Assembly (NCBI GenBank): GCA_964034945.1
Contig: OZ035962.1
Span: 52,942,231-53,006,230 of the forward strand
Origin: Chrysopilus asiliformis
Taxonomy: Eukaryota > Arthropoda > Insecta > Diptera > Rhagionidae
Length of the DNA stretch: 64,000 nucleotides
Reading direction: 5' to 3'
Of this stretch, positions 6,186 to 59,513 are shown piece by piece. A program made the position numbers and the translations under genes. The notes beneath the pieces are model-generated. The model saw only the letters and a program-made list of their open reading frames with translations. It searched no databases and was not told where the DNA came from. How positions within the stretch are numbered: the stretch's first letter is position 1; the number at the start of each line of letters is the position of its first letter.

Positions 6186-6365
6186 CTAAAATTAAGAAAA
6201 ACAAGATTTTAAAATTTTATATGAGAAAACTTCGTATATAAAATAAAACAAATAAGTTGTTTAGTCTACAAATCATATTGACGCATTAAACTGAAGCTTT
6301 TTCGCATCGAATTGGCTTTTATACAGGCATGTATAGGTTTTACATATAAATATATATGTCCATTA

Positions 6366-6564
6366 ATATATATATATATATATATATATATATATATATA
6401 TATATATATATATATATATATATATATATATATATATATATATATATATATATATATATATATATATATATATATATATATATATATATATATATATATA
6501 TATATATATATATATATATATATATATATATATATATATATATATATATATATATATATATATA
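6366..6564. repeat. (AT)n microsatellite, about 200 bp
   Basis: An uninterrupted AT dinucleotide run. The IYIYIY frames on both strands are artefacts of it. Confidence 0.98.
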
Positions 6565-7796
6565 ATTGTATATAAAATGTTGGCGAAAACTGTGTCATAA
6601 AAATATACTTATTAAGAATTATATGATTATGTTCAAAAATCACAATAATCAATTCGTAAGATATAAAAGTGAGCGATTTGCGCCCTAAGCGATAACTATA
6701 ATAAAAAGCTCAAATAAAAAGCGGTAATAGTATTAAAGATATACCTAAATAGAGTAGCCCCTACTTTTAAACACATAAGTTGTTCCCCGAATAAAATAAT
6801 AAATGTCGTTTACAGCAGTAAACCGAATAATCACCGAAGAACTTCTTTATTTGTAGAGTGAGGTATTTGATTTGCTGTCTTTTACTTATCAGAATATAAA
6901 ATTTTTATGATATCTTCTGAATTAAATTCCAAGTACCTTTTAATGTATTAATATAAGTTTTACAGCTTATTGATCATCTGTTATATTTTTGTTTGTTTCG
7001 TAATCATTTCAATTCAAGTACCGAATTTCTCACGGGGAACTATTGAATACAATGAAATTAAATTTTTATTGAGCAATGCAGAATTGGAAACATTTTTGAT
7101 AGGAAGCATCAAGTTTCGGTTCCAAGAATTCAATATTGAACCATTATCAGACTCTGTGGCCAAAACGGTGGAATCTATGGTCAAAGAAAATTTTCTGTGC
7201 TCTTTTATTTACGATACGTCGTCACTGTTTTTTTTTTTCAAAATCTGTCGACGAACCAGTCGATGTACTCCTAGGAGTATGTGTATCCCCGATTGGGAAA
7301 CACTGTCCATTAATTTCCTAAAGATAAGATTTAGTACAAGGAACATTTTTAAGGTGTTCGCCTTCGATTCTCTTCGCATTCACATATGTTATAGTACTGA
7401 AAAAACCAAACGACACGTGTTCTTTATATCGGCATATATTCAGTTTTAAGCTGGGGTAACCTCCCTCGAAAATCGGGCGAAACAACGATTTTCGGTCATT
7501 TTTCAGCAACCAGTCGCCCGATTTAAACGAAACAAAAACCAGAAGTTTTCTTCCTGGGAGTAGAATCAAACTGATGAAAAAAAAATTTTTTTCGAAAAAA
7601 TGTTTGATCCTATTGAGATAGAACCTTCATTTTTGGCACAGAAGTTTCTGTTTGAAGCCTCATTAACCAGCTGAAGACAACTTTAATATATCGCACTAAA
7701 TTCACGCCGCTGTCATACCAATCAACCGTTTCTATAGAGTTGTTGGGTTAACTTCACTAAACTGAAGTTAGCGCCGATATGACAAAGAATGGCTAA
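6565..7796. other. Intronic stretch, unrecognised, with a weak 159-codon frame
   Basis: A plus-strand frame at 6970-7449 carries a hydrophobic start and a plausible globular stretch (about residues 20-80). A T10 run at about 7229-7238 precedes a second frame reading KSVDEPVDVLLGVCVSP, as if a longer coding sequence had been broken there. I do not recognise the product. It may be a relic of a transposon gene; nothing else is identifiable in the stretch. Confidence 0.3.
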
Positions 7797-8424
7797 AGTT
7801 CAATTTAGCGACAATGACGCTTGAGATTTTTCGTGTATAGGGAGGAGTAGAAAAAAGCATCCCTTATCCAAAATGGGTATTTTTAGCCGTCGCTCGCCCC
7901 CTTTGCCTCCTCCAGGGGTCCCTAAACTTTGTATGAAACTTTTTTCTGGGTGATGGTAGGGGGCTGTGTACCTCAAATGAAAGGTAATGAAGAGTGCATT
8001 CCAAAAATGTATAGCATGATAGGGTTTCTCCCCTCACCCTTCGATTTATACCCCATCGAAAAAAAGTGGAATTTTGCAACAAAACTAGCACAATTTCGGG
8101 TCGCAAACCTCATAAAAGTGGCTTGAAATGACTGCTGACACTGTTTTAATTACAACATTTCATTTTATAATTTCCATATAACTTCAATTTTTTGCCGGAA
8201 ACAAACTTGAGCTACAAACCAATATTACTTAGAGGCCAGGCGGACAAACTTTTCAGCCACACCCCGCTTTTCCCACCCCCGCCGCCTCATTTTTGCGAAA
8301 ACTCGCCTCCCACTTTTTGATGTAGCTTGAAAACGGGTTGAGATATTTATATGATTCTTTGCATTTTATTATCTGGAGTATTAGGCGCAGTTTTTGGTAA
8401 AAAAAATCGTCTTTCCCCTCGTTT
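7797..8424. mobile_element. Inverted-repeat element 1, left half (split by Gypsy A)
   Basis: The sequence from AGTTCAATTTAGCGACAATG onward is repeated in reverse complement at 27097-27516. Shared blocks include GACGCT(T/A)GAGATTTTTCGTG, CAAAATGGGTATTTTTAGCC, GTCGCTCGCCCC and CATTCCAAAAATGTATAGCA. The right arm has an extra segment of about 130 bp. Left half, Gypsy A and right half are contiguous, so Gypsy A integrated into a pre-existing element with long inverted termini. No target duplication for the outer element was resolved. Confidence 0.75.
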
Positions 8425-9372
8425 TGTCATAACTGGCCATCCAACCCAAATCCAGGGCATATGGTTGCAATAAAGGAAAGAAGATTCTCTTCCCAGAATC
8501 TAAAGTGGACCACTAAACCTTCATGCGCGTAAATCGCTTAACGCGGACATTACGTAAAACTAAAAGTGTCGTTTCCCATTTATCATGTGAAGTACAGTGT
8601 TTACTTACTCACATGTGGAAGCGATAAATAGGGAAACGATGAACACGACAATTTCTTGATTCAAGTCAAGGTGTCGTATTGCATAACGATGACCAAGCCA
8701 CTTAATTGCTTCTGTGCAATGTATGGCCAAAAGTGCATCGTATCGTTTTCAAGTTCAGCCCAACGTAAACAAACCATTGGTTGAGCCACATGTGCGCTTC
8801 AAAGTGCTATATGAATCGAGACATATAGCACAAATCGAGCCATGTGTGCTTATTACATAAGCAAGAAGGTCAACCAATGGGAAACAATATGGAAACGTAT
8901 GCGCGAGCGGATTGGCTAAGCAACTGCTGATTATCGGACGAGCATAGCTGAATACTCGAGGAAGGGCTATGTTCGAACGGTAATAAAAGAAACGGTCAGC
9001 CAGTTGCGAACGGCTAGTAAGAGGTCAGTAACAATTACAAAATCAAGTGAGTAATAATTGAGCAAAACAGTAATGCATTAGTAAGTTAAAAGGTAACATC
9101 TAAAGCAGTTACCAGTTATCAGTTGACAGTTAGTAGTTTCTTGAGTTACCAGTAAAAAGTTAGCAGTTACAAATCAGTAATGAGTTATAAAACAGAAGTG
9201 GATCAATAGTTATAAAAAAAAAACAGAGTAACAAATTAAAAGGTTAGCAGTGACTAGTTAAGCAGTAGTAAAAGCTAAGTAAATGTAAATTTGTGATTGT
9301 GAAGTGAGAGAGATAATAATAAATTAGCTAACAAAAATATAAAAAATGTTTAATTTAAACTTAACATTATCA
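8425..9372 (+). repeat. Gypsy A 5' LTR (948 bp)
   Basis: Starts TGTCATAACTGG and ends ATTATCA. A polyadenylation-type AATAAA lies at about 8981. It matches the 3' LTR along its whole length except for small indels and two local duplications in the 3' copy. Downstream, TGGCGATCC at 9379 may be the primer-binding site. Confidence 0.9.
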
Positions 9373-10163
9373 GATCGTTGGCGATCCTCTACCAAAATAA
9401 AAATGAGATAAAAAGGGAAAAAAATAATAAAATAAAAATAAAATAATAATAATAGTGGAGTTTTTTGTTTGTTGTGTTACATATAACATATAATTAAATA
9501 AATGAAATAAATAACAAACTCTTATAAACACATCACGTATAAATGTTCGAATAAAAGTGGATAACGAAACAATTTCCTTTAACATAGTACATCACTCAAT
9601 AAATAACGACAAACAAATAAATGAATAAACTCCTTACAACCATATAAAAACAAATAAATAATAAAAAAAAAACGTAATATAATAATAACGAAATTTTTAA
9701 CCGGAAAATCTCGTTCAAGCATAAATTAAAAGAATACATAAATGAAAATACAAAAAAAAGACTAGATAATGTTATTCCACATAAAAACAGTTTCTGCTAA
9801 CAAATAAAAAACCGGTGCTGTGCAACAACTGCCGAGGCAGTATAAAAAAGAACGTCGAAACCTCAGAAGGGTTACTAAACTGCCGAGGCAGTATAAACTG
9901 AGCGGCGATAAAAGATGAGCAGCGAAGACACCAACACCAGCAGCAACATCATCACTGTGGACGAGGACGTCACGCAGGACTGGAATATATCAGTGGCCAT
10001 CGAAGCAGAATTAGAGGCTTATAAAAAGGCAGTAGCTCTCTGTTTTACCTACTGGCTAGGAGAAAAAACAACAGCAGCAGCAGCAGTAGAAACAACAACA
10101 ACGACAACAGCATCGGAAAAAATGTCAACAAAAACTATGTGAGTTTAGAAGATAAGCAAACTT
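9373..10163 (+). other. Gypsy A leader with 75-codon frame
   Basis: This is the untranslated leader after the 5' LTR. A frame at 9915-10142 starts MSSEDTNTSS and ends in a Thr/Ala-rich tail. It could be an N-terminal gag exon separated from the rest by the Penelope-like insertion, or chance. A motif CTGCCGAGGCAGTATAAA occurs twice (about 9828 and 9880). Confidence 0.45.
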
Positions 10164-58381: not shown

Positions 58382-58397
58382 TATATATATATGTAAG

Positions 58398-58515
58398 GGG
58401 GGGGGGATAAATTAATGATGTTTCGTCCCCTCTCCCTCCCCTCCCCTCTCCTCCCCTACCATCACCCACCCACCCATCACCCACCCGACCCATCTCCCCA
58501 ACACTTCCCTAACTT
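58398..58515. repeat. G run followed by a pyrimidine (C-rich) tract
   Basis: GGGGGGGGGG at about 58398, then about 90 bp of CCCTCTCC/CACCCACCC sequence. It is strongly asymmetric between strands. Confidence 0.85.
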
Positions 58516-58519
58516 CCCA

Positions 58520-58765
58520 CGATAATCTTCATTACGATAAATTGTTCTTACGATAAATTGTTCTTACGATAAATTGTTCTTACGATAAATTGTTCTTACA
58601 ATAAATTGTTCTTACGATAAATTGTCTTACGATAAATTGTCTCACGATAAATTGTTCTTACGATAAATTGTTCTTACGATAAATTGTTCTTACGATAAAT
58701 TGTTCTTACGATAAATTGTTTTACGATAAATTGTTCACGATAAATTGTTTACGATAAATTGACCG
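58520..58765. repeat. Minisatellite ACGATAAATTGTTCTT
   Basis: About fifteen copies of a 12-16 bp unit (core ACGATAAATTGT plus TCTT, TT or nothing). Unit length shortens towards the right end. Intronic, about 750 bp from the slit LRRNT exon. Confidence 0.93.
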
Positions 58766-59513
58766 GCACCCCATCGATTCTACTACTATTTTTCGGCCGA
58801 TTTACTACGATTTTGAAAATCAAAAGTCACAACCCTGAACAGAACTTTAATGCTAGGAGCGAAATATCGTTCTCTCAGTAGTAAAATACATACTTATATG
58901 TGTGTGTGCATCATACCCAACAGCCATCGCTCGAGTCTTTCATTCATTTTTATGCGAGAACCACAAACCGTTTTGAACAAGAAGCGAAAACTTAAATAGA
59001 AATCATTTTCTATCGAGTATCATCGCTTTGAAATTTGTTATCATCGCAGCAAGCCGAATTTGTACCGCCATATCAAAATCTAAGACGTACATATCCACAT
59101 CAAAAATATTTTTTTTATTATCTATTTAGGGTATCACGCCCATGTCCGCGGCTACAAAGGTTATTTTTATGTTATACCTATCAACTAATTTTTCAAGAAA
59201 TAAAACCGTATTTCCGAATCTGGGACTTTTCGCCAAATTCTTATCTTTTATTCTCCAGATAATATAAAATCTTATCTTTTATTCTCCAGTAAATCTACTC
59301 GTGTACTTTTTGTTTTTGTTTCATGTATTTATTTCTATTCAAGTACAATAGTTATTAGTTGAATTTTGAAATATAAGTATTACTACACAAATAGAAAATT
59401 TAATGTGCCAAAACATACATATTTGATCTAGAAAATTTGATGTGTACAAGTTTGACTTTGGATTAGAATACATGTTTCCTAAATCCAGGATAAATACAAA
59501 TATTTCTACTTAC
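58766..59513. other. Intron next to the slit LRRNT exon
   Basis: Apparently unique sequence, with no transposon signature and no coding frame. It includes the GTAAGTAG donor adjoining 59514. This and the short 471-bp intron are among the few parts of the window not attributable to mobile DNA. Confidence 0.5.

What the first reader, a model, noticed from the sequence alone, without database searches (positions are those of the whole stretch)
6186..59513. A single slit intron of about 53 kb built almost wholly of nested transposons
Seen: three Slit exons join perfectly in phase and protein order, and the gap between LRRNT and LRR1 holds at least 20 identifiable insertions. Known: Slit is an essential developmental gene. 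Inference: splicing across this intron must survive five internal LTR polyadenylation regions and many cryptic splice sites.
Basis: partly seen in the sequence, partly recalled or inferred. Interest (0 to 1): 0.75.

Follow-up and report, generated by a model that had tools for sequence, protein, structure and literature searches.

The report
Transposon-swollen intron in insect slit gene
A 53-kb gap inside the nerve-guidance gene slit of an unnamed insect is a real intron made mostly of jumping genes, but it is one of about seven introns of 27 to 71 kb in that gene and of a kind already known from flies and mosquitoes.

Summary
Confirmed, with corrections. Three slit exons on the minus strand join in phase through GT-AG sites; the joined 166 residues align without a gap to the second LRR domain of human SLIT2, so no residue is missing at the join. 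The intron is 53,328 bp without N. At least 45,338 bp (85%, 451 bp of it simple repeats) is assigned to transposons; I count 18 insertions, not 20 or more. Three LTR elements (LTR divergence 0.9-2.4%), with what later jumped into them, span 34.3 kb (64%), so most growth is recent. The intron position is old: 23 of 83 homologous fragments break exactly there.

The 'single intron' framing fails: slit covers at least 353 kb, with other introns of about 27, 29, 31, 35, 58 and 71 kb. Sense 5' splice and polyadenylation motifs are near chance; four of six LTRs, not five, lie in slit sense. No strong recursive splice site was found, though 63% of Drosophila introns over 40 kb have one (PMC6110457): the one testable oddity. 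A nested element carries DUF7869, modelled as a DDE-transposase-like fold. No RNA data were available.

The parts
59514..59655 (-). slit exon A: LRRNT of LRR domain 2
6186..59513 (-). slit intron, 53,328 bp
6042..6185 (-). slit exon B: first LRRs of domain 2
5356..5570 (-). slit exon C: further LRRs of domain 2; single match in the home genome
7790..8424 (.). TIR-A, left half (inverted-repeat element split by E1)
   Evidence: 154 bp at 90% and 98 bp at 81%, inverted
8425..27095 (+). E1: defective Ty3/Gypsy-type LTR element with env-like pieces, antisense to slit; LTRs 8425-9373 and 26055-27095
   Evidence: LTRs 935 of 947 aligned bases identical; Pfam pieces
27096..27523 (.). TIR-A, right half
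10196..11097 (.). palindromic element inside E1, arms 394 of 397 identical
18658..19786 (+). E4 copy (Helitron-like piece with 122-bp array) inside E1
20187..20758 (+). E5 copy (DINE-1-like) inside E1, between the two env-like pieces
24866..25892 (+). E4 copy inside E1
28929..37467 (-). G2: Gypsy-type LTR element in slit sense, flanked by AAAGG on both sides
   Evidence: LTRs 120 of 123 identical; Pfam
29106..32331 (-). Helitron 1: PIF1 helicase pieces and CTAG hairpin end, inside G2 (5' end not fixed)
32442..33038 (.). E4/E5 pieces inside the G2/Helitron 1 span
37473..38045 (+). E5 copy (DINE-1-like)
38043..38801 (.). TIR-B, 139-bp inverted ends at 93%
40979..41357 (-). E4-like Helitron piece
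41627..46709 (-). Helitron 2: 1591-aa open frame with Helitron_like_N and PIF1 (ends not fixed)
47342..47698 (+). E4 piece
48607..50269 (-). E4 plus E5 copy, counted as one insertion
50275..50945 (.). TIR-C, 89-bp inverted ends at 91%
51260..58381 (-). G3: Gypsy-type LTR element in slit sense, inside an AT repeat
   Evidence: LTRs 232 of 234 identical; Pfam; other copies
53600..55551 (+). DUF7869 element nested in G3 between RT and RNase H; limits approximate

Best explanation
An old intron of slit, at a position shared with many relatives, was enlarged by repeated insertion of ordinary transposons, most of it since three LTR elements with 0.9-2.4% LTR divergence arrived. The insertions are tolerated because they lie between intact, strong splice sites and leave the exons untouched; the 53 kb are presumably transcribed and removed as one intron. 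Shown here: exon phase, splice sites, absence of gaps, element anatomy and nesting, long introns across the gene. Inferred: transcription and splicing in the animal, tolerance, and ages in years.
For: Exon join and gapless SLIT2 D2 match. Boundary 47|48 reproduced exactly in 23 of 83 homologous proteins: 13 start at residue 48 after unrelated residues, 10 end at 47. LTR pairs, AAAGG flanks of G2, TIR-A split by E1, domain order. G3 is multicopy: 12 matches of its LTR including the two here, with two other pairs 4.7 kb apart and one about 5.0 kb, against 7.1 kb here, as expected with a nested insert of about 2 kb. Slit exons in order on one strand of C3 with other introns of about 27.4, 35.2, 70.7, 58.2, 30.6 and 28.7 kb.
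Against: 27 of 83 homologous proteins run across the junction (gene models, transcripts or lineages without the intron). No RNA evidence. 15% of the intron is unassigned. E1 has no perfect target duplication (GTTT/GTTA at best), and its stretch at about 21.3-24.9 kb is assigned only because it lies between the LTRs. Only G3 was shown to be multicopy genome-wide; in the 264 kb around the locus the E1 LTR, G2, G3, palindrome, TIR-A and the DUF7869 element had no second copy outside the window.
Confidence: 0.88

Rival explanations
1. Assembly artefact: the two exon sides were joined wrongly, or transposon copies were added by mis-assembly.
For: Repeat-rich region; a 200-N gap lies only about 5 kb beyond exon C, in the next intron.
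Against: No N within the intron; exons on both sides belong to one gene and lie in order with the further slit exons on the same contig; exon C has one match in the genome; nested insertions and LTR pairs are coherent.
Confidence: 0.05
2. The interval is kept long by function: it holds slit enhancers, alternative exons or a nested gene, and the transposons merely fill the rest.
For: About 8 kb is unassigned, and slit is long throughout.
Against: A six-frame motif scan gave no convincing further LRR exon and the coding join is complete; the frames with Pfam matches inside are transposon domains.
Confidence: 0.15
3. Regional effect: slit lies in a repeat-rich, perhaps pericentromeric, block of C3, so every gene there has swollen introns; nothing is particular to slit. 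This extends rather than contradicts the best explanation.
For: The window is at 53.0 of 114.8 Mb of C3; all four long slit introns in the fetched 264 kb are repeat-rich.
Against: Centromere position and gene density were not measured.
Confidence: 0.35

Closest known systems
Aedes aegypti fruitless introns (PMC3572092, passages read)
   Same: Developmental gene of a dipteran with very large, repeat-filled introns (up to 424 kb).
   Different: About 40% repeats in that largest intron, which the authors found in line with Aedes introns in general; here 85% is assigned to transposons, by anatomy, in a 429-Mb assembly.
Very long Drosophila introns with recursive splice sites (Pai et al. 2018, PMC6110457, abstract and passages read)
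   Same: Intron over 40 kb in a developmental gene.
   Different: [quoted passage not shown] no strong candidate was found here.
Gigantic introns of Drosophila Y-linked genes (PMC12965833, search listing only)
   Same: Very long introns in genes that must still be spliced.
   Different: Those are Y-linked; whether C3 is a sex chromosome was not determined.

Membership tests
Slit orthologue | LRR domain D2 sequence | tested here: met
   best PDB match SLIT2 D2 at 196.7 bits; next, LRRC15, 182.7 bits summed over 5 stretches
Slit orthologue | several LRR domains followed by EGF repeats and laminin G in one gene | tested here: met
   in-order matches on C3 minus with a Slit query recalled from memory
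Slit orthologue | C-terminal cysteine knot | not tested
   not included in the query
Recursively spliced long intron | ratchet point: AG|GT with flanking splice motifs | tested here: inconclusive
   strict pattern 0 on either strand; best sense score 11.4 of 23.8, reached by 169 of 200 shuffles; weight matrix assumed, no RNA
Ty3/Gypsy LTR element (E1, G2, G3) | LTR pair with RT, RNase H, integrase in that order | tested here: met
   for integrase, E1 matched only the zinc-binding domain, and G2's core match (E 0.0047) is below the Pfam cut-off
Errantivirus-like element (E1) | env gene behind pol | tested here: inconclusive
   two separate Baculo_F pieces (E 9.3e-9 and 1.1e-7), searched apart, with an E5 copy between them
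Helitron (Helitron 2) | Rep-like N domain plus PIF1 helicase | tested here: met
   element ends not resolved
Helitron (Helitron 1) | Rep-like N domain plus PIF1 helicase | tested here: inconclusive
   PIF1 pieces only; 61% DNA identity to Helitron 2 over 2,214 columns
Helitron (Helitron 1) | 3' hairpin and CTRR end, no target duplication | tested here: inconclusive
   hairpin and CTAG before T read by eye; a duplicated flank of about 42 bp is unexplained
DINE-1/HINE (E5) | subterminal inverted repeats plus microsatellite | tested here: met
   CCCGTATGGTGA...TCACCATACGGG and ACAG-type repeats; definition recalled, papers seen as listing only
DDE DNA transposon (DUF7869 element) | RNase H-like fold with catalytic D, D, E | tested here: met
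   [not shown]
DDE DNA transposon (DUF7869 element) | terminal inverted repeats and target duplication | tested here: inconclusive
   a 17-bp inverted subterminal repeat only; copy search not answered

The most novel reading that the evidence does not exclude
slit in this insect is a giant gene (at least 353 kb) whose introns of 27-71 kb are swollen by transposons, the 53-kb one recently, and are removed accurately without strong recursive splice sites; it would be a natural test of whether recursive splicing is needed for very long insect introns.
Probability: 0.3. Interest if true: 0.45.

Novelty: new member of a known kind. Interest (0 to 1): 0.25.

Why it matters
It documents, with nested insertions that can be dated, how an old intron of an essential guidance gene gained about 34 kb recently while its splice sites stayed intact, and it offers a concrete long intron without a strong ratchet point for testing how such introns are removed. 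As a phenomenon, transposon-filled long introns in dipteran genes are already known.

Tried and rejected
Rejected: a special load of cryptic sites (5' splice motifs and AATAAA near control, ATTAAA below it). Strong ratchet points in the other slit introns in hand: best sense scores 13.0 (27 kb; shuffle median 12.5), 12.6 (35 kb; 12.4), 14.9 (71 kb; 13.6), none above the 95th percentile of 100 shuffles. Hidden slit exons: the six-frame motif scan gave only exons A-C as convincing matches. The interval C3:52831724-52876735 (45 kb) is not counted as one intron, because about 34 residues of the query (D3 LRRNT) were not matched; the 58-kb intron leaves 12 query residues unmatched at its edges.

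Led nowhere: copy number of E1 and of the DUF7869 element (search not answered). The repeat finder was swamped by the satellite. Paper searches: slit with transposon-filled introns (0 papers; 15 papers listed, no title about slit); DUF7869 (0 papers in the held PMC library; nothing else was searched). A sequence profile of DUF7869 found no PDB relative at E <= 1. Pfam scans of 20 of the shorter frames gave domains in only a few.

Full report
What is there. The window lies at C3:52,942,231-53,006,230 of an unnamed 429-Mb assembly of 42 contigs. Three exons on the minus strand, 59514-59655, 6042-6185 and 5356-5570, join in phase with GT-AG borders. The 166 joined residues match human SLIT2 D2 (2v9s, E 2.2e-57) without a gap over residues 14-166, so nothing is missing at the junction. 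Homologues with a source name come from arthropods (among them Phlebotomus, Anopheles and Glossina), vertebrates and a nematode; that the host is a dipteran is my inference.

The intron is old, its length is not. Of the 83 homologous proteins, 23 break exactly at the exon A|B boundary (13 begin at residue 48 after unrelated residues, 10 end at 47), 27 run across it, two start three residues before it and the other 31 do not cover it. The proteins are not independent species samples. Those that run across may be gene models, transcripts or lineages without the intron.

Anatomy. Three LTR elements were recognised by LTR pairs and Pfam domains. E1 (8425-27095, antisense to slit) has LTRs identical at 935 of 947 aligned bases, RT, RNase H and integrase zinc-binding pieces, and two Baculo_F-like env pieces; it sits inside TIR-A, whose halves flank it, and by position holds a palindrome, two E4 copies and an E5 copy. 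It is defective: the frames of its pol pieces are interrupted by stops and at least one frame change, and an E5 copy lies between the env-like pieces. G2 (28929-37467, slit sense; AAAGG on both sides; LTRs 120 of 123) holds Helitron 1. G3 (51260-58381, slit sense; LTRs 232 of 234) holds a DUF7869 element between RT and RNase H. The G3 LTR has 12 matches genome-wide including the two here, a lower bound; two other LTR pairs lie 4.7 kb apart (C4:42.33 Mb, C2:67.56 Mb) and one about 5.0 kb (C3:64.28 Mb), against 7.1 kb here, as expected for a nested insert. Helitron 2 has a 1591-aa open frame with Helitron_like_N and PIF1. Smaller inverted-repeat and Helitron-like pieces bring the count to 18 insertions by my criteria. 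The union of assigned stretches is 45,338 of 53,328 bp, 451 bp of it simple repeats; this counts everything between the E1 LTRs. The three LTR spans make 34,331 bp, 64% (element limits are good to a base or two). With a Drosophila-like rate of 0.011 substitutions per site per Myr, recalled and not known for this species, LTR divergences of 0.9-2.4% would mean about 0.4-1.1 Myr.

Is it special? Within its gene, no. With a Slit query recalled from memory, matches lie in protein order on the minus strand of C3 from 53,064,906 down to 52,711,704, 353 kb. The introns between successive matches are about 27.4, 35.2, 53.3, 0.47, 70.7, 58.2 (12 query residues unmatched at its edges), 30.6 and 28.7 kb; a further 45-kb interval must hold at least one undetected exon. 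The 53-kb intron is third longest. Repeats shared within the fetched 264 kb cover 66% of the 27-kb, 53% of the 35-kb, 40% of the 53-kb and 28% of the 71-kb intron. The only run of N in those 264 kb, 200 bases at 52,942,229, lies in the 71-kb intron.

Splicing burden. On the slit strand of the intron, with antisense and 60 Markov controls in brackets: GTAAGT 9 (7; 10.3 +/- 3.0), GTRAGT 17 (16; 17.5 +/- 4.0), AATAAA 86 (92; 77.3 +/- 9.1), ATTAAA 61 (58; 75.1 +/- 8.3), a 3' splice-site pattern 13 (18; 7.2 +/- 2.7). The last exceeds its control on both strands, so it does not depend on orientation. Four of six LTRs are in slit sense, three of which hold AATAAA on that strand; E1's two hold none. 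A strict ratchet-point pattern occurs on neither strand; with an assumed fly-like matrix the best sense score, 11.4 of 23.8, is reached by 169 of 200 shuffles. Pai et al. 2018 (PMC6110457, abstract and passages) report high-confidence recursive sites in 63% of fly introns over 40 kb. The absence here is suggestive only: the matrix was assumed and there is no RNA.

Known context. Aedes aegypti fruitless has introns up to 424 kb, the largest about 40% repeats, in line with other introns of that genome (PMC3572092, passages). Gigantic introns on Drosophila Y chromosomes are a studied topic (PMC12965833, listing only). This locus is a new member of that kind.

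Noticed in passing
window 53878-54840: DUF7869 (unknown function) looks like a DDE-type transposase domain by predicted fold and invariant D, D, E; no paper in the held PMC library names DUF7869.
   Followed up: partly
window 1-3877: A 3.7-kb array of about 307 copies of CTGTCAGTCTGT abuts the scaffold gap; no exact unit occurs in the 40 kb on the far side. It may be an overgrown Helitron/DINE-type GTCT microsatellite (inference).
   Followed up: partly
window 45826-46631: The Helitron 2 frame carries 11.7 copies of a 69-bp (23-codon) tandem repeat near its start.
   Followed up: no
window 18797-19578, 24993-25692, 49608-50266: Helitron-like copies carry a tandem array of a unit of about 122 bp with differing copy number.
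   Followed up: no
window 29054-29095 and 33304-33345: A duplication of about 42 bp lies on both sides of Helitron 1, unexpected for a Helitron.
   Followed up: no
window 61204-61785: ORF with a DUF4817 helix-turn-helix domain in the neighbouring slit intron.
   Followed up: no
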